From assembly GCA_043820025.1 (NCBI GenBank), contig JBDRED010000017.1:1-6392 (forward strand): a DNA stretch of 6,392 bases. The letters run 5' to 3'. Positions 1 through 6,392 of the stretch are shown one piece after another. The notes beneath the pieces were generated by a model. It searched no databases. It was given only the letters and a program-made list of their open reading frames with translations, and was not told where the DNA came from. Each line of letters opens with the position of its first letter. The stretch's first letter is position 1. This stretch comes from JBDRED01 sp043820025 [NCBI: Elusimicrobiota bacterium]. GTDB lineage: Bacteria > RUG730 > JBDRED01. The position numbers and the translations under genes are program-made.

Positions 1-3000
1 GCCTTATGAGGGATAAGGAGAGCCCTGTAAAGACGCTTGCTGATGTAGAGAAAGCGTTTAGAGAAAAAGGCATGGAGATATATGCTGAAAGCGGCCATAT
101 TATAAGGGTCTTAACATTAATAAGAAACGAAGGATATATTACAGACGAGGAGTTTGATGATTTTAAAGATATATTAGAAAATCCTGTTAAGCGGGCCGGT
201 GAGTTTAACAGATATGATACAAACAGAAAATCATACAAAAGGCTTTTTGGCAGGGAAGCATTATCTACGCAGAAAGGCCTGATGTTCCTGGCAACAGCTG
301 TTTTCAATAAGTACTATTTATCTGTTGATGAGTACTTTGACAGCATTGTTCAGGGAAGCCATCTGCATCTGGTAACAACTGAAATGGTGCAAAAGAGTTT
401 TGAGGAGTTTTTCTGGTTTGACGATACGGAAATACATAGCGATAAGAAGACCCGCGAGATAGAGACAGGCGCAGGATTTTTGGTATATAATCCGAACTAC
501 AGGGCAAGCTGGGAAGACCTTGTTAAACGTCTAAGAAATTCGGGTGATATTTTAGAGCAAGAAAAAGAAGCGCTCTTAACATTTGACAGACAGCTCAGCA
601 TACACGATCCTGAGGCAGAATGGCTGAGGAAGCTTCCGGAGGATGCGCGGGACGCAATAACAGAATGGCTGAACCGCAGGACTCCATGCGCAAATAAAGC
701 GGCTAATGAGATGCGCAAGCTTTTCACAGAAAGCTGGAGAAGGCATATATCAATTCATAAACATAATAAGGAATATTGGCATCTTGATGCTTATCAGCAG
801 GATCAGGTAGATACTATTGTAAATAATACATTCAGGTATGTCTTAAAAGCAGGGCCTCCGGGGATAGGCGCTCAAACAAAGGATATGGAAAAGATACGCG
901 CAAGTTATCTCAGGCTGTTACGTGATATGGATATACCAGAATATAATCTATTCTATAAAACCGTAGCAAATATGGAGCTTAAGTGGAACGGCGGGTTTAA
1001 TTATAATCCCGGGAATCTTAATGAGGCTATTACGATAGGCCATGCAGGCCAGATGTTTGATATGATTTTTAGGATACTGCCTAAGCGCCCTGACATCGAA
1101 GAAGCATTAAAAGGATTTGAGCGTCCATCCATCCTGCATCTTGAGATTATGCATAACTTATATACTACAAGGCCCCAAGCAGAGGATGCTGATCGCGCCG
1201 CAGTAATACAGAAAATGAGAGATAAAGGACTTAATACAGAAATTTATCTTAAAAACTATCGTAAAATATTTGAAGATATTTTGAAAGAAACAGGGGATGG
1301 CGCTTTGAACAATGAACAAAAAAATATCTTAAAGAATATTAAGAATAACAATGAATTTAAGCTTCTCTTTGATAAAGAAAAACTGGACATACGCCAGTCT
1401 GAGTATATGCGCACATGGTTTATAGGACAGAGCGAGATAAATCATTTAATTGAGTGGCAGTATACAAAGAAGTCCGCAATACCCGGCGGTTATAAAGCTG
1501 ATGATGGCGGAATAGACGCGCAAGTATTAAAAAATATGTATTTAACACTTTTAACAAGATTAGGATGCCAAGATACAACTCTTTATAATGAATTGGAGTC
1601 ATTGGTTGGCGGTAAATTGACAGCGCGCGGTATAATATTCGATATTGAAGAAAAATATAAAAAAGATGATAATATTTTTGCTGAAGTACAGGCTGCAATT
1701 GAAGCATCTGGAATAGAAGAAGCTCAAGCTGAAGCTCTAGCTGATGCATTGTTTGATATGGACACAATTGAACGAGTGTATAATAAATACATAATATTAG
1801 GGAATAAAGGAGCGGCAAATATTGGCGAACAATTGAAGGAGTGGCTGGCAGAAGAAGTAGAAGAAGTAGAAGAAGTAGAAGAAGTAGAAGAAGTAGAAGA
1901 AGTAGAAGAAGGCCAAGTTGCGGCAGGCGCATTTAATGCTGTGCATAAAAGCGCTGTTTACGATAAGCAGTATACAGCTGATAAACGTGTGCTTGACGAG
2001 TACGGCCGAGTGCTTCCAAGCGGGCTACGCTTTCTTAATGCGGAGATTAAAACTCAGGGCCATGCAATGGTTTTTGTTGTTGCTGATTCTACAGATTATT
2101 TATATTTAGTCAGATACTTTAAAAACCCGGATATAGGTATGGCAATGCATTTTCTAAAAGGTATTTCCGGCCAGAGCGATACTGACTCTGAGGTCGGGCC
2201 GGGTATGGCATTTAATCTTCCGGGCGCAATAGCAGATATTGCGGGTAACTCAAATGTAGCTATGGGAATTATTCCGATCTATGTGCAGTATGAAAATAAC
2301 AAGATAGGTAAATCAGCGTCGCTTGCTGAAACATCGGGATCAATGTCAGTAAATGAAGTGTTTGGCAGGTCAGATATTTCAGGAAATGTCGGTTCAGCAT
2401 TCTGCTGGGGTAAGGCATATCAGGAACAGCGTATGATGCGCAAAGCGCAGGCAAAGAAACTCGGCTGGGTAAGCGAAGATGCGGTTGAAGGCTATGATGC
2501 TGAGGAGATGGGCTGGAGTGTTAAATATATGAACAGGTCTTTAGTGCGCCTTGGCGAAGGTATAGAATCGCGTAAGACAGGGCTTATGGGTTCATGGCGA
2601 AAGTATCCGCGAGGTAATGTTGAATTAAAATTAAATATTTTTGATAAATATATGCGAAACATGAATGTGCATCCAACGAATAAGATTCGCTTGCTTATGA
2701 CAGCCGGTTTTTATGATAAAAAACCGATGGTTCTTGCTTCAATTATCGCTGTAGTTTTATTTGCGATATTTATGCCGTCATTTAATGTGTTTGCGTTCCT
2801 GCCTATAGTTTTCTTAACTCTCGGCTGGTTCTTTACAGAGGCAATTAACCTGGTCGGGTTCCAGGCATATAAGGAAAGATACGGGCTTAAAAAAGGTTTA
2901 AAAGAATTTATTAAAGATTTCCCGTTATTCATGGTATTTTTTACAATTCTTATTCCAAGCTATGCAAATGATATTATCGAGGGCACAAAGGGCCATGCAA

Positions 3001-6000
3001 CCTTTCAACTGCGCGACCCGTCTGAAGATCAGTCAACATTTACATGGCAGAGCGTCTGGGAACAGGATAAGCATGCGATCATGTTAGGCGCTTTATTACT
3101 GCCGCTTCTTATAATGTCATTCAGCCCTATATCAGGCATAGCGTTTATTTTTTACTATCTGACTATTTTCGCATGGGCAGTAGGGCCGTATATTATGAAC
3201 ACAAATGTCAGCTGGTATGAAAAGCCGCTGGACGCTGCAAAGGGATTAATTTACAGCACTGTTCAACTGCCATACTGGGGGCTAAGAATATTTGAGGTAA
3301 TATTTATAAATCCGATACTCGACTGGTTTGGCACAGAGGCGCATAATAAATATGTCGAGGGAGTGCAGGAAAGAGGCCATAAGAGCAGTTTATGGAACAT
3401 CTGGGAATACCGCAAAGACTGGCTGTCAACATTGCTGTCAACAATCTCGCAAAGGCTGGTAGTTCTTCCAAGGCCAATAAATTATTTTACCAGAGGCCTG
3501 TTAACAAAGGATAATGTCTCAGGCGTGATTAGTAAAAAATATGAAAATATTAGTAAAGCAGAGAGAGCGCGTTTGACAAATCTTATGTGGAACAGACTAA
3601 TAATTACAGGATTTATCAATGAAAAAGGCGAGATAAATCATAATAAGATGCGGCTGGTTACACAAGCGGATGCTCGAAATAATTTTAGAAACGTGTTTAA
3701 TACTGACATAGAATATTTAAAAGAAAATGCCGAAACTCTTGGAGATGCTGAGTTTAAACGAATCGCGGCTGATCTATATATCTGTCCGGCCTCAAACCTG
3801 GAAGAGCAGGTGGAAGAGGAAGAGGTAGAGGTAGAGGTAGATTTAGAGGTGTCAGAGGAAGGATCAGAGGAAGGATTAGAGGAAGGAGTTATTGTCGCAG
3901 TGCAGGCGGAAGAGTCAGAGTCAGAGTCAGCGGGAGTGGCAGCATTGTTTATTAGTCAAGATTATTCGCTTCAAGATAGGGAGCAAGACTTAGATAATCT
4001 TTTTGATAGAATGTATGTAAGGATGAAAAAAAAGTCTGACACAGACATATTAAAAATGCGTGTATGGTATGGCGCGGATAATGATAATTATACGAATTAT
4101 TTTGAAGATAAAATTGGAATATATAAATACCCTGTAAGAGGAGCGCTATTTATAGCGCATTGGATTTTGCGCGCTATAGGCTTTATGTTTGGTGCTATGT
4201 TGGGCGGAATTTTTATTAACCTGTATATCCCGAGAATAAATATGTCGGATGTTAGTCAAATAGAGGGAGTAAATTTTAGTTATGGGTTATGGGAATATTT
4301 GGTAGAAAAAGGTTATATAGCCCAAAACGGCAGAGTATTAAAAAGCGATGTGGCGGAAGATAACAAGCCAAAATCGATTATATCTCAAAACTTAAGAACT
4401 AACTTGGGAGCTCTATCTGGTACGATCAGACGAGGTGACTATACAATTGATCAGGGATTTTTCTTGAATAATATTGATAACATAAAAAATTCTGACGGCC
4501 TTACACAGTGGCTTGTAAATAATAATTATATTACAGTAAAAACAATTACTATGGAGAATATTGGTGGAGAAGAAGGAAAGGTGGAAAGCGTAACTATAAA
4601 TAAAAGTTTAACTGACAATTTTGCTCAAAACTATAGAATATGGGTTAGAGATGGTTATGTAGAAGACGCAGAAGTAGCAGTAGCAGTAGAAGTAGAAGTA
4701 GAAGTAGAAGTAGCATCCCGCCTCTTAAAGCGCAGGCAGGCTGTGTCAGACCCTGCAAGCGTTTTGGGTATTAGGTATTTATTGGAAAATGGCAGGTGGT
4801 ATGACTTCTTCCGCTGGTTCTTGCGCAGACTGCTTAGGCCGTTTGCAATTGAGAAAGCGGTTGACGCATTATTTGCAAAAATACCTAAGCTTGGCAAGGA
4901 TGGCAAAGGCCCGATATTAAGGCTGTTCAATTTCGCTAAAACAAAAGCAATTAAATTTGTTAAAAATAATATTTTCAGCCTTAAGTTCTTAAACAACTGG
5001 GTCATTGCGCTGAGTTCAGGCCTTGTTCTTGTTGGTATTGGCATATTCTTCTGGCAGGTACTGCCTGTATTGGCAGGCGCAGGAATAATGTGGGCAGGCT
5101 ATGCGGCTATACCTATTCTGCCGTTTGTGTTTGGCTGGATAGGCGGAAGCGCTATACTTATAGGCGCGCTCTTGGTAATAGGCACGCTCGCAAGGCTGTT
5201 TAGCACATACAGAGGCAGGGACAATAAGATAGGAAGCGAGTGGAGATGGGACATAACGAAAAACTTCGATAATGAAACAAAGGCTTGGCTTTTATCTAAA
5301 GGATACATAGATGAAAAAGGCCACTCATTAATAGACAGAAAGAAAACAAGCTTTACGCAGGAAGAAAGTATGGAGCTCTGTGATATTGTTTATGAAAATC
5401 CAGATCAGGAATTTGCTAATAAATACGCTAAACGCATAATGAAAAAGCTCAAGCGCGGCCGCAATGAATCGCGCTTAAAATCATTCAGTATCAGAGCAGT
5501 ACTGGTTAGTTTTGGCGCAGTAGTATTCTCTATAGGCTGTGTTATTGTAGTGCTTGGAGTATTTACAACCACATTCAGCGGGCCTGTTGTGCTTGTAATG
5601 GCAGGCATAGGCTCTGCGCTTATACTTATCGGCTCTGCATTCATAGCGCGCTCTACTAAAGGCGCAAGCTTTAATCTTCTGCCAAAAAAATTAAGGCCTT
5701 GGTTTATGCCAAAGGATGTGGGCGAAAAGTTAGCATGGACAATACTATCAGTATTCTTTTACAGCATTGCTGTTGCAGGACTTGTTGTAGCGTCCGGCGC
5801 CGCAATACATGTTATAAATATACCCTTAGGTATAAGCATAGCTCTGCTTGTCGCGGGCTTTTTATCAATGTGGATGGTAGTTATACCTGAGCCTGTTACA
5901 ACATTTGCTAAAAATAAATTAATGGCTCTTCTAAAATTTATTGACACAAGAATAACCAGAATACAAGTTAACCATGCGGTTATAGGAGGCGCGCTTTCAG

Positions 6001-6392
6001 CAGGCTTTATGCTGGCAAAGTTATTTGGCGCAAGCCCTGTATTGTTCACGCATTTAAAAATATTTGTCAAGATTGTTACATTCTGGACAGCAGTGCCTAC
6101 AGCAGCTGCGCTTATGCTTATGGGCGGTAATGTTTATCCTGCGCTCGCGCTGTTTATAGTCGCAATGATGCTGATTATGGTTTATGCCGCATACCTCATT
6201 ACACAGGTAAGGGAGGTTGAAAAAGGCATTACACCAAAGGAAGAAGAAGGGATCGCTTCAGGCGGCGAAGAAGCTATGGAAGATAAAGCAATTCCGGTCA
6301 ATGTGCCACGCGCAGCAAGAATTAGAAAATTCGCTGATGCAACTCTGCGCAAAATCCCGGGAATAGGAGAATTATTAGCAAATGGATTTTTT
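1..6392 (+). CDS. Internal fragment of a giant multi-pass membrane protein with a GT48-like glucan synthase core (partial at both ends)
   Basis: A single frame stays open across the whole window: codons begin at base 3, bases 1-2 finish the previous codon, and I read 2,130 codons without a stop. The first in-frame ATG (6-8) has too little upstream sequence to judge, and the protein starts mid-module, so I treat it as internal. No stop or terminator is seen at the right end. The product alternates large soluble segments with at least three clusters of hydrophobic helices (residues about 905-1107, 1667-1732, 1831-2067) plus a hairpin near 1379-1408. Residues 126-322 and 640-1145 resemble 1,3-beta-glucan synthases (GT48), motif by motif and in order. 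The likely role is synthesis and export of a surface polysaccharide at the inner membrane, which is inference. The continuous frame is near certain; function is moderately supported. A GT2-type processive synthase is the main alternative. Confidence 0.93.
6..377 (+). other. N-terminal soluble helical segment with GYI mini-motif
   Basis: Residues 2-125 are charged and probably mostly helical, with no membrane segment. A short hydrophobic helix (VLTLIRNE, 36-43) leads into GYITDEEF (44-51), the first copy of a mini-motif that recurs further along the protein. It is followed by a basic/aromatic stretch and a second helical unit (LMFLATAVFNKYYLSVDEYF). I do not recognise a family. In fungal and plant glucan synthases a membrane bundle and cytosolic region precede the part that follows here, so this may be a linker between an upstream membrane block, outside the window, and the glucosyltransferase region. 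Confidence 0.45.
378..968 (+). other. GT48-like domain, N-terminal half (cytosolic region before the catalytic core)
   Basis: Residues 126-322 match, in order, conserved stretches of 1,3-beta-glucan synthases recalled from family knowledge. SFEEFFWFDD (132-141) followed by GFLVYNPNY (158-166) fits the family's ISFFSNSLF then FSVLTPYY with similar spacing. EALLTFDRQL to EAEWLRKL (189-210) fits the ILFYLQ...EW segment. EWLNRRTPCANKAANEM (221-237) fits the family's WAS.R.QTL.RTV.GMM stretch. NNTFRYVLKAGPPGIG (274-289) then YLRLLRDMDIPEYNLFYK (302-319) fits KF.YVV..Q.YG followed by the Lys-rich, A..I..L...YP.L..AYID stretch. Identity is low in each, so it is the ordered series that carries weight. 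It should lie in the cytosol and pack against the transferase core. A profile comparison would decide it. Confidence 0.5.
969..1910 (+). other. Helical insertion of about 310 residues splitting the GT48-like region
   Basis: Residues 323-636 have no counterpart I can recall in 1,3-beta-glucan synthases, where the two flanking motif blocks lie only some tens of residues apart. The segment starts with an Asn/Gly-rich turn (KWNGGFNYNPGNLNEA, 327-342). It continues as charged helices, including a Lys/Asn-rich stretch (about 418-458) and an Ala/Glu-rich helix (EASGIEEAQAEALADALF, 567-584). It ends in a Glu-Glu-Val repeat (617-636). There is no membrane segment and no recognised catalytic motif. It could be a regulatory or scaffolding insertion. 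Alternatively, it may hold a diverged domain that cannot be identified by eye. Confidence 0.4.
1851..1910 (+). repeat. Perfect 9-bp tandem repeat encoding (Glu-Glu-Val)6-Glu-Glu
   Basis: The unit gaagaagta is repeated six times without error and followed by a partial unit gaagaa, 60 bp in total. In frame it encodes residues 617-636 as Glu-Glu-Val repeats. Each unit is a multiple of three, so gain or loss of copies by slippage would lengthen or shorten the linker without shifting the frame. It sits exactly between the helical insertion and the second half of the GT48-like region. The absence of any synonymous change suggests recent expansion. Confidence 0.97.
1911..2720 (+). other. GT48-like glycosyltransferase catalytic core
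   Basis: Residues 637-906 carry the second set of ordered glucan synthase motifs. KTQGHAMVF (683-691), then ADSTD (694-698), fits the family's GKxxNQNHAIIF...IDxNQDN, the nucleotide-sugar/metal region. YENNKIGK to NEVFGR (763-789) fits the SEN.IG...E.TF...FAR stretch. SEDAVEGYD (824-832) fits (S/N)ED(I)xAGxN, whose acidic residue is the presumed general base and corresponds to the TED motif of GT2. VRLGEG (848-853) stands where the family has GKGRDxG. WRKYPRG (865-871) also recalls the QxxRW signature of GT2 enzymes. The expected reaction is glucosyl transfer from UDP-glucose on the cytosolic face. The Lys-Gly-Arg-Asp motif is not intact, so altered specificity or loss of activity is possible. 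A GT2 or GT84 assignment is the alternative. Confidence 0.55.
2721..3435 (+). other. Membrane bundle following the transferase core (GT48-like channel region)
   Basis: Hydrophobic helices are visible at residues about 908-927, 930-948, 973-988, 1025-1042 and 1044-1064, with a further aromatic, possibly interfacial or re-entrant, stretch at 1083-1107. Family-like signatures continue here. GLKEFIKDF...VFFT (963-981) fits the plant L.DFI...VFFT stretch. EGTKGHATF (993-1001) fits the HGG..YRATGRGF loop. WAVGPYIMNTNVSWYEKPLD (1058-1077) is the clearest match in the window, to the family's W.FAPF.FNP..F.W....DD. SLWNIWEYRKDWL (1129-1141) recalls the SWW.EE..HL stretch after it. In glucan synthases this bundle forms the polymer translocation path, and the same role is inferred here. 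Confidence 0.58.
3436..3800 (+). other. Soluble module with GFINEKG motif
   Basis: Residues 1146-1266 follow the first membrane bundle. A basic/hydrophobic start (RLVVLPRPINYFTRGLL, 1151-1167) is probably close to the membrane surface. It is followed by a helical unit, NLMWNRLIITGFINEKGEI (1193-1211), that contains the second good copy of the GYI-type mini-motif. The rest is a charged helical stretch ending at LYICPASN. I recognise no enzyme family. Its position between a membrane bundle and an acidic linker matches that of the other GYI modules in this protein. Confidence 0.4.
3801..3938 (+). repeat. Acidic low-complexity linker (Glu/Val, Ser-Glu-Glu-Gly and Ser-Glu repeats)
   Basis: Residues 1267-1312 consist almost entirely of Glu, Val, Ser and Gly. 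Three sub-repeats follow one another: gaggta units (Glu-Val) at 3822-3839, a 12-bp unit of the type tcagaggaagga (Ser-Glu-Glu-Gly, with a Leu-Glu-Glu-Gly variant) at 3852-3887, and gagtca units (Glu-Ser) at 3912-3929. All preserve frame. It is presumably a flexible, strongly negative tether between the GFINEKG module and the next soluble domain. Unlike the first repeat, it shows codon and residue variation between units, suggesting it is older. Confidence 0.9.
3939..4670 (+). other. Soluble modules around a membrane hairpin, with three GYI-type motifs
   Basis: Residues 1313-1556. A charged helical region (SLQDREQDLDNLFDRM, 1322-1337, and a basic KMRVWYG stretch) precedes a hydrophobic, glycine-rich segment at about 1379-1408 (ALFIAHWILRAIGFMFG onward). 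This is long enough for one helix plus a turn, or a short hairpin. After it come LWEYLVEKGYIAQNGRV (1429-1445), LTQWLVNNNYITV (1500-1512) and YRIWVRDGYVEDAEV (1545-1558), three versions of the same Trp-containing mini-motif within about 130 residues. I do not recognise a family. These look like tandem, decayed copies of one small structural unit. Confidence 0.4.
4671..4715 (+). repeat. Alternating Glu/Ala-Val tandem repeat linker
   Basis: Fifteen codons alternate an acidic or small residue with valine: gaagta, two gcagta units, then four gaagta units ending in gca (residues 1557-1571). The unit is 6 bp and frame-preserving. The gaagta core is shared with the repeat at 1851-1910, although the two loci are about 2.8 kb apart. 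The linker follows directly on a GYI-type motif (DGYVEDAE) and leads into a strongly basic stretch (RLLKRR), giving a sharp charge switch before the second membrane block. Confidence 0.93.
4716..5000 (+). other. Basic juxtamembrane segment
   Basis: Residues 1572-1666 are rich in Arg, Lys, Phe and Trp: RLLKRRQ at the start, RWYDFFRWFLRRLLRPF at 1598-1614, then Lys-rich helices (AKTKAIKFVKNNIF) up to the next membrane helix. The pattern suggests amphipathic helices lying on the inner face of the membrane, with positive charges placing this side in the cytosol. No enzymatic motif is seen. Confidence 0.4.
5001..5198 (+). other. Second membrane block (about three helices)
   Basis: Residues 1667-1732 form a nearly continuous hydrophobic, glycine- and alanine-rich stretch, best read as helices at about 1667-1685, 1688-1706 and 1710-1731. 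It ends in GGSAILIGALLVIG and is followed by a basic turn (RLFSTYRGRD). The sequence near its end resembles the end of the first helix pair in the next membrane block, hinting at internal duplication. I recognise no transporter family. Confidence 0.6.
5199..5486 (+). other. Soluble module with GYIDEKG motif
   Basis: Residues 1733-1828 lie between two membrane blocks. A Trp-rich turn (SEWRWDITKNF) leads into ETKAWLLSKGYIDEKGHSL (1758-1776), the closest partner of the GFINEKG copy near residue 1203. Helical, charged sequence follows (QEESMELCDIVYENPDQEF). The module closes with a very basic end (KRIMKKLKRGR), probably on the cytosolic side. Its layout of motif, acidic helix and basic end suggests a recurring spacer or docking module rather than an enzyme. 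Confidence 0.42.
5487..6206 (+). other. Third membrane block (about seven helices)
   Basis: Residues 1829-2068 are strongly hydrophobic, with likely helices near 1831-1852, 1858-1880, 1910-1930, 1940-1961, 1991-2008, 2022-2041 and 2045-2066. Short polar or basic loops (ARSTKGA, RPWFMPKDVGEK, KNKLMALLKFIDTRITR) separate them. Gly/Ala/Val-rich packing and the absence of conserved charges inside the helices give no hint of an ion- or proton-coupled carrier. I do not recognise the family. It may be a structural membrane anchor, a diverged channel, or the membrane part of a following unit beyond the window. Confidence 0.55.
6207..6392 (+). other. Acidic-then-basic soluble segment continuing out of the window
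   Basis: Residues 2069-2130 leave the membrane with an acidic, low-complexity stretch (EVEKGITPKEEEGIASGG, then EEAMEDK). They then turn into a Pro/Arg-rich and helical basic segment (RAARIRKFADATLRKIPG). The frame is still open at the last base, so the protein continues. The change from acidic linker to basic amphipathic helix repeats what is seen after the linker at 4671-4715. Confidence 0.5.

What the first reader, a model, noticed from the sequence alone, without database searches (positions are those of the whole stretch)
378..3435. GT48-type (FKS/callose synthase-like) glucan synthase core in a probable bacterial giant protein
At least nine short motifs of 1,3-beta-glucan synthases appear in the same order as in the family. 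They include SFEEFFWFDD with GFLVYNPNY, EWLNRRTPCANKAANEM, NNTFRYVLKAGPPGIG, KTQGHAMVF with ADSTD, YENNKIGK to VFGR, SEDAVEGYD, VFFT, EGTKGHATF, and WAVGPYIMNTNVSWYEKPLD. The last lies at the end of a membrane helix, as in the family. GT48 is mainly a eukaryotic family and bacterial curdlan synthase is GT2. A GT48-like enzyme here would therefore bear on the origin of the fungal and plant enzymes or on a new branch of processive synthases. Motif comparison is from memory and individual identities are low.
Basis: partly seen in the sequence, partly recalled or inferred. Interest (0 to 1): 0.88.

Follow-up and report, generated by a model that had tools for sequence, protein, structure and literature searches.

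The report
Glucan synthase domain in giant protein
A stretch of an enormous bacterial membrane protein is a distant relative of the enzyme that builds the glucan walls of fungi and plants, and its sister proteins in the same bacterial phylum carry clear versions of that enzyme, which points to a bacterial link in its origin.

Summary
The window is one open frame (2,130 aa, open at both ends). Its aa 35-312 and 660-1069 align with the GT domain and following helices of yeast FKS1. Pfam does not see this in the window alone. A profile of 55 frames from Omnitrophota genomes, window left out, scores it 178.7 bits, against at most 3.2 bits for 200 shuffles. A profile of the window and 20 relatives without a significant Pfam GT48 match finds yeast FKS2/FKS1 first in the PDB (3.9e-20) and BcsA after them (2.6e-9). 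The predicted structure matches Fks1 narrowly ahead of BcsA (Z 19.6 v 18.2).
The larger result: 32 of 384 Omnitrophota genomes carry PF02364 (GT48) over its cut-off, up to 296 bits, 16 of the 32 in frames over 5,000 aa. One is 1.1e-52 to yeast GSC2. With GT2 as outgroup, yeast FKS1 falls among the bacterial sequences.
The window's own copy is outlying: it keeps D, E and D of the active site but has lost the K/R motif and perhaps the UDP-glucose lysine, so its activity is uncertain. Only one eukaryotic sequence could be used.

The parts
3..6392 (+). One open frame, 2,130 aa, open at both ends: an inner piece of a large, probably giant, protein
   Evidence: relatives lie in open frames of up to 57,099 aa
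105..938 (+). N-terminal part of the GT48-like domain (aa 35-312), with E127 (FKS1 E851) and W222 (FKS1 W942)
   Evidence: 22 bits on its own with the profile that leaves the window out
939..1979 (+). Insertion inside the domain (aa 313-659), including an E/V repeat
   Evidence: low pLDDT
1850..1911 (+). In-frame 9-base tandem repeat, 6.9 copies (Glu-Glu-Val)
1980..3209 (+). Core of the GT48-like domain: GT part and membrane helices (aa 660-1069)
2043..2051 (+). E681-I-K683: place of FKS1 K1082 (E681 in the column, K683 two residues on)
   Evidence: model confidence is low here
2178..2186 (+). D726-T-D728, at the FKS1 D1102-A-N1104 (DAN) position
2475..2480 (+). E825-D826, at the FKS1 E1221-D1222 catalytic ED motif
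2553..2567 (+). G851-E-G-I-E855, where FKS1 has GKGRD and many relatives GK.RE
2727..3194 (+). Membrane-helix cluster after the GT part (hydrophobic peaks at aa 909, 935, 1025, 1046)
3210..6392 (+). Rest of the frame (aa 1070-2130): E/V linkers and further hydrophobic peaks; no family match
   Evidence: 4722-6392 only; from 3600

Best explanation
The stretch is a membrane-bound glycosyltransferase domain of the GT48 side of the cellulose-synthase/GT48 group, built into a very large multi-domain protein, most likely of an Omnitrophota bacterium. By homology it would work like FKS1: the cytosolic GT-A part binds a UDP-sugar (probably UDP-glucose), D726 sits at the nucleotide-sugar site, E825-D826 act in catalysis, and the growing beta-linked chain leaves through the helices that follow. 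Homology and order of parts are shown here; the sugar, the linkage, export and activity are inferred. In most relatives the active-site set is complete, so the family is probably active; for this copy, with a changed K/R motif, I put activity at about even odds.
For: Profile of 55 frames of 54 loci without the window: 178.7 bits. Profile of 21 sequences, none with a significant PF02364 match (best 0.15, in 1 of 21): GSC2 3.9e-20, FKS1 9e-17, BcsA 2.6e-9; the FKS1 match takes in the N-terminal part of the profile, the BcsA match does not. PF02364 over cut-off in 32 of 384 Omnitrophota genomes and 0 of 14 controls, 2 of which ring below it. L075 v GSC2 1.1e-52, model Z 33.9 over 593 residues. 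K1082-D1102-E1221-D1222 all kept in 51 of 56 family rows, 3 of the other 5 being gapped. Hydrophobic peaks before and after but none inside the GT part in 11 of 11 GT48 frames examined, of 20 fetched. Window model: Fks1 Z 19.6 over 540 residues.
Against: No Pfam match in the window alone and none with the profile of the 20 GT48-certified frames alone. 7 of 21 A3 members match GT2 PF13632 at E<=1, more than match PF02364. FKS1 K1082 column is E681 in both alignments, and GKGRD is GEGIE. Window-to-FKS1 identity is 78 of 558 columns. Foldseek ranks BcsA above Fks1, and Z 19.6 v 18.2 is a narrow lead, with other Fks1 chains lower. Its place in the tree is unsure: long branch, a long-branch warning, and no starred set holds it.
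Confidence: 0.78

Rival explanations
1. It is an early-branching GT2 (cellulose-synthase-like) synthase domain that only shares the general fold with GT48.
For: 10 of 29 A2 members match PF13632 (GT2) at E<=1, 8 of 29 PF02364; in A3 it is 7 and 1 of 21. The closest tblastn relative, L049, passes both cut-offs when trimmed and neither in its whole frame. Foldseek puts BcsA first. LiM's first copy is plain GT2.
Against: The A3 profile still prefers GSC2 to BcsA by about eleven orders of magnitude and FKS1 by about seven. The N-terminal part is shared with FKS1 and not with BcsA. Matches in 294 Planctomycetota genomes reach only 4.8e-15 and cover only the C-terminal half of the profile. A tree with the window on the GT48 side is not rejected (p 0.593).
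Confidence: 0.22
2. The window's copy is a catalytically dead scaffold that keeps the fold for membrane anchoring or sugar binding.
For: The K1082 column is E and GKGRD is GEGIE, where K1082 is K in 53 of 53 and R1248 is R in 39 of 55 ungapped rows.
Against: D726, E825, D826, E127 and W222 are kept. A lysine lies two residues on. L122 also has GEGIE, with its K, D and ED in place.
Confidence: 0.35
3. The motif order is chance or low-complexity similarity.
For: Pfam finds nothing of note in the window; individual identities are low.
Against: Shuffles that keep local composition reach 3.2 bits, the window 178.7.
Confidence: 0.01

Closest known systems
Fungal/plant 1,3-beta-glucan synthase, CAZy GT48 / Pfam PF02364 (FKS1, callose synthase)
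   Same: Order of parts, W...R stretch, DAN aspartate, ED motif, membrane helices after the GT part; formal GT48 domains in proteins of related giant kind
   Different: Window below the Pfam cut-off; K/R motif changed; lies inside a very large protein; 78 of 558 columns identical to FKS1
Bacterial cellulose synthase BcsA (GT2)
   Same: GT-A core and translocating helices; next-best profile match after the yeast enzymes, and near-equal structure match
   Different: Profile match leaves out the N-terminal GT48 part; shorter aligned length (365 v 540 residues for the best chains)
Omnitrophota giant proteins (Velamenicoccus archaeovorus LiM, 39,678 aa; PMC10066038, passages seen)
   Same: Giant frame with many membrane helices; LiM's holds two matches to this family's profile
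   Different: LiM's first copy is plain GT2, the second very divergent; the passages propose degradation of target polysaccharides or adhesion, and the main text holds none of the words glucan, glycosyltransferase or cellulose synth-

Membership tests
GT48 / PF02364 | Window scores over the Pfam cut-off (37.2 bits) | tested here: not met
   No PF02364 match at E<=10
GT48 / PF02364 | Profile of the window's own group finds GT48 first among solved structures | tested here: met
   GSC2 3.9e-20, FKS1 9e-17, BcsA 2.6e-9; 1 of 21 members has PF02364 at 0.15, none better
GT48 / PF02364 | Catalytic ED (FKS1 E1221-D1222) | tested here: met
   E825-D826
GT48 / PF02364 | DAN aspartate (FKS1 D1102) | tested here: met
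   D726 of D-T-D
GT48 / PF02364 | UDP-glucose lysine (FKS1 K1082) | tested here: inconclusive
   E681 in the column, K683 two residues on; a two-residue deletion would restore the register (inference)
GT48 / PF02364 | UDP-glucose tyrosine (FKS1 Y849) | tested here: not met
   T125; but Y in only 4 of 47 ungapped family rows
GT48 / PF02364 | GKGR(D/E) stretch (recalled as typical of the family; in FKS1) | tested here: not met
   GEGIE
GT48 / PF02364 | Fold of FKS1 GT domain plus following helices | tested here: met
   VIA-align Z 19.6, rmsd 4.1, 540 residues; BcsA Z 18.2 over 365; other Fks1/Fks2 chains 12.1-18.3; Foldseek ranks BcsA first
GT48 / PF02364 | Membrane bundle before the GT domain | not testable with these tools
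   Would lie upstream of the window; 1 to 6 hydrophobic peaks in 11 of 11 GT48 frames examined
GT48 / PF02364 | Makes 1,3-beta-glucan from UDP-glucose | not testable with these tools
   Needs biochemistry
GT2 (BcsA type) | Window scores over a Pfam GT2 cut-off | tested here: not met
   No GT2 family at E<=10

The most novel reading that the evidence does not exclude
GT48, the enzyme that builds fungal glucan and plant callose, arose inside Omnitrophota giant proteins from a GT2 ancestor, passed through forms that bridge both families (as the window and L049 do), and reached eukaryotes by gene transfer. With GT2 as outgroup FKS1 lies within a 31-row otherwise bacterial clade (100/96), and the tree that puts it outside the 30 bacterial rows is rejected (p 0.001). 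Whether it is nested in, or sister to, the 21 bacterial GT48 rows is open (p 0.54). Only one eukaryotic sequence and one outgroup phylum were used.
Probability: 0.4. Interest if true: 0.93.

Novelty: new variant of a known kind. Interest (0 to 1): 0.82.

Why it matters
The passages seen discuss GT48 only in eukaryotes. Clear GT48 domains in 32 of 384 Omnitrophota genomes (one per species), and a graded series from GT2 to GT48 in one phylum, make the origin of fungal and plant glucan synthases directly testable. They also give the giant proteins of these tiny, possibly predatory bacteria, which have few annotated domains, a concrete enzymatic activity to test: making a polysaccharide, rather than or besides degrading one.

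Tried and rejected
Direct searches that led nowhere: Pfam and NCBIfam on the window; PDB phmmer with the core and with L049; the core in genome and viral contigs, N- and C-terminal parts in viral contigs; the core in plasmids; L075 in plasmids and phages; A5 in viral contigs. The C-terminal part 4722-6392 gave 3 weak matches of 53 genomes and 3600-6392 no Pfam family. In the viral fold library the named matches with E below 0.01 are glycosyltransferases of GT2 or chitin-synthase type, an uncharacterised protein and ESV-1-84.

Considered and dropped: ADSTD as the DAN motif (both alignments choose D726). Close kinship of window and L122 through the shared GEGIE (no phmmer match at E<=1e-3). Contamination by eukaryotic DNA as the source of bacterial GT48: by the best place of each of the 32 genomes, 28 frames exceed 1,900 aa and 11 exceed 10,000 aa; one of the 32 (G263) shows one stop inside. 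The first profile-to-FKS1 test (4.6e-15) and A2 held L040 and L049, both over the PF02364 cut-off when trimmed; I rely on A3. In choosing A3 I meant to leave out every member with a PF02364 match at E<=1; the later scan shows that one member still has such a match, at 0.15. Rows dropped before the rooted tree: L081 and L044 (same places as L047 and L091), L063, L045, L050. The counts over 56 rows include those two duplicate places, and L050 as two rows. One row over the PF02364 cut-off, L049, lies outside the 31-row clade of the tree. My list of genomes at 1e-20 had 89 names; G377 (1.1e-20) is dropped here, leaving 88.

Limits: the phylum of the window is inferred from relatives; no genome is held for it. 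The Omnitrophota draws are 384 genomes of a larger group; of other phyla only Planctomycetota was searched (PF02364 0 of 294 at E<=0.01, where the tool warns that nothing rang in the controls; A4 0 of 294 at 1e-20). The genomes that supplied the A4 rows match A4 by construction. The West-Roberts 2023 preprint on giant genes is not held, so prior notice there cannot be excluded.
Full report
What is there. The window is a single open frame from base 3 to 6392 without a stop. No genome is held for it. Pfam, NCBIfam and PDB sequence searches with the window or its core alone find nothing of note. Its relatives were found by searching Omnitrophota genomes: 8 of 31 (E<=0.01) and 50 of 384 (E<=0.001) hold a tblastn match to the core, in open frames of up to 57,099 aa. 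The window is therefore most likely from an Omnitrophota giant gene; that is inference from relatives.

GT48 in the phylum. Pfam PF02364 (GT48) searched in the same phylum draw gives 32 of 384 genomes over the curated cut-off, best 296 bits and 6.5e-89; of 14 control genomes 2 ring and 0 pass the cut-off. Taking the best place of each of the 32 genomes, the frames have a median of 5,424 aa; 16 of 32 exceed 5,000 aa and 11 exceed 10,000 aa. Some are cut by contig ends. L075 matches yeast GSC2 at 1.1e-52 and FKS1 at 3.6e-51 by single-sequence phmmer. Its model aligns with Fks1 at Z 33.9 over 593 residues, other Fks1/Fks2 entries at 19.7-33.3, and BcsA at up to 16.6. In 11 of 11 such frames examined (of 20 fetched), hydrophobic peaks lie before and after the GT part and none inside it. 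That agrees with the FKS1 layout as described in the passages seen of PMC12715860 (passages; section 12 read). Several of the PF02364 places are also places that the window's core matched, for example G035:C24, G075:C16 and G140:C24.

Linking the window. The profile of the 20 GT48 frames alone does not reach the window. One round later, with 55 frames of 54 loci and no window in the profile, the window scores 178.7 bits; 200 block shuffles, the reversed window and three reversed giant frames stay at or below 3.2 bits. Conversely, the window with 20 relatives finds GSC2 (3.9e-20) and FKS1 (9e-17) as best PDB sequences, then BcsA (2.6e-9). Of those 21 members 1 has a PF02364 match at E<=1, at 0.15, and 7 have a GT2 match to PF13632, best 7.9e-6. 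A2, which also held members over the PF02364 cut-off, gave the same order. The AlphaFold model of aa 21-1110 (mean pLDDT 64.9, core mostly above 80, low around K683) matches Fks1 at Z 19.6 over 540 residues, Fks2 at 18.3 over 565, BcsA at 18.2 over 365. Other Fks1/Fks2 chains in that list score 12.1-16.7, and Foldseek's E-value puts BcsA first and Fks1 second. So the window is nearer GT48 than GT2 by sequence profile; by structure the two are close.

Active site. FKS1 residues named in PMC12715860 were mapped through the family alignment. Of 56 family rows, 51 keep K1082, D1102, E1221 and D1222; 3 have gaps and 2 have a substitution. The window keeps E851 (E127), W942 (W222), D1102 (D726) and E1221-D1222 (E825-D826). 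It has E681 where K1082 stands, with K683 two residues on, and GEGIE where FKS1 has GKGRD. Y849 is not kept in the window (T125), and is kept in only 4 of 47 ungapped family rows. Family conservation argues for activity of the family; for this copy it is open.

Place in the tree. Six Planctomycetota sequences, ordinary GT2 by their length and match, served as outgroup. In a 70-row tree of 270 columns FKS1 falls in a 22-row GT48 clade (100/100) inside a 31-row clade (100/96), all other members being from Omnitrophota genomes. An earlier unrooted tree of 56 rows also put FKS1 with 20 GT48 rows (SH-aLRT 100). Keeping the 30 bacterial rows together without FKS1 is rejected (p 0.00115); joining FKS1 to the GT2 outgroup is rejected (p 0.0001); FKS1 as sister to the 21 bacterial GT48 rows is not rejected (p 0.541). 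The groups for these tests were named after the tree was seen, which weakens the p-values, and the alignment was fitted to the family profile. The window is on a long branch (2.27) with a long-branch warning; holding it with the GT48 clade is not rejected (p 0.593). L049, its closest tblastn relative, passes both the PF02364 and the PF13632 cut-off when trimmed (47.4 and 29.5 bits), but neither in its whole frame (32.0 and 26.6); it lies outside the 31-row clade.

How widespread. The family profile A4 matches 121 of 384 Omnitrophota genomes at 1e-5; by my count of its table 88 of 384 pass 1e-20, some of which supplied its rows. Many of the weak matches lie in frames of about 490-760 aa and look like ordinary GT2. 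In Planctomycetota 60 of 294 match at 1e-5 but the best is 4.8e-15 and none passes 1e-20. The LiM giant frame (39,687 aa) holds two matches; the first is plain GT2 by Pfam.

Context. Giant frames carry other enzymes beside the GT domain: peptidase C39, ATP-grasp, CofD and, below its cut-off, HAD-like regions in one, peptidase M42 in another, B12-binding and radical SAM directly after the GT domain in a third. The synthase domain is thus one module of a very large membrane protein.

Literature. No paper in the held library has both GT48 and Omnitroph- or both Omnitrophota and glucan synthase. PF02364 with bacteria lists 11 papers, all on eukaryotes by title or start of abstract. Other searches, listings only. 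Seymour 2023 (PMC10066038, passages) reports giant frames with few annotated domains. The giant-gene preprint of West-Roberts 2023, cited in PMC12057145 (passages), is not held.

Verdict. The window is a divergent GT48-like synthase domain, and its phylum holds unmistakable GT48. The wider claim about origin rests on trees with one eukaryotic row and needs proper sampling. On checking, one statement about A3 was weakened, and the confidence in the best explanation lowered slightly for it.

Noticed in passing
L102 (G184:C53), aa 861-1714 of the frame: GT48/GT2-like domain followed in the same frame by B12-binding and radical SAM domains.
   Followed up: no
L095-L097 (G093:C7:1-52824, minus strand): 17,608-aa frame with peptidase C39, YheC/D ATP-grasp, DUF7790 and CofD over their Pfam cut-offs, and TPR and HAD-like matches below them, beside the GT domain.
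   Followed up: partly
L116 and L117 (V. archaeovorus LiM, G011:C1:57825-58448 and 81084-82082): The published giant frame of LiM holds two synthase-like domains, the first plain GT2, the second very divergent.
   Followed up: partly
window 1850-1911, 3800-3930, 4670-4713: Tandem repeats with units of 6, 9, 12 or 18 bases, all multiples of three, that code for Glu/Val- and Glu/Gly/Ser-rich linkers.
   Followed up: no
L122 (G287:C97): Another family member with the GEGIE variant of the GKGR(E/D) stretch, with its K, D and ED in place.
   Followed up: partly
window 3210-6392: About 1,060 aa with eight further hydrophobic peaks and no Pfam match; relatives were sought only for 4722-6392, with 3 weak matches of 53 genomes.
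   Followed up: partly
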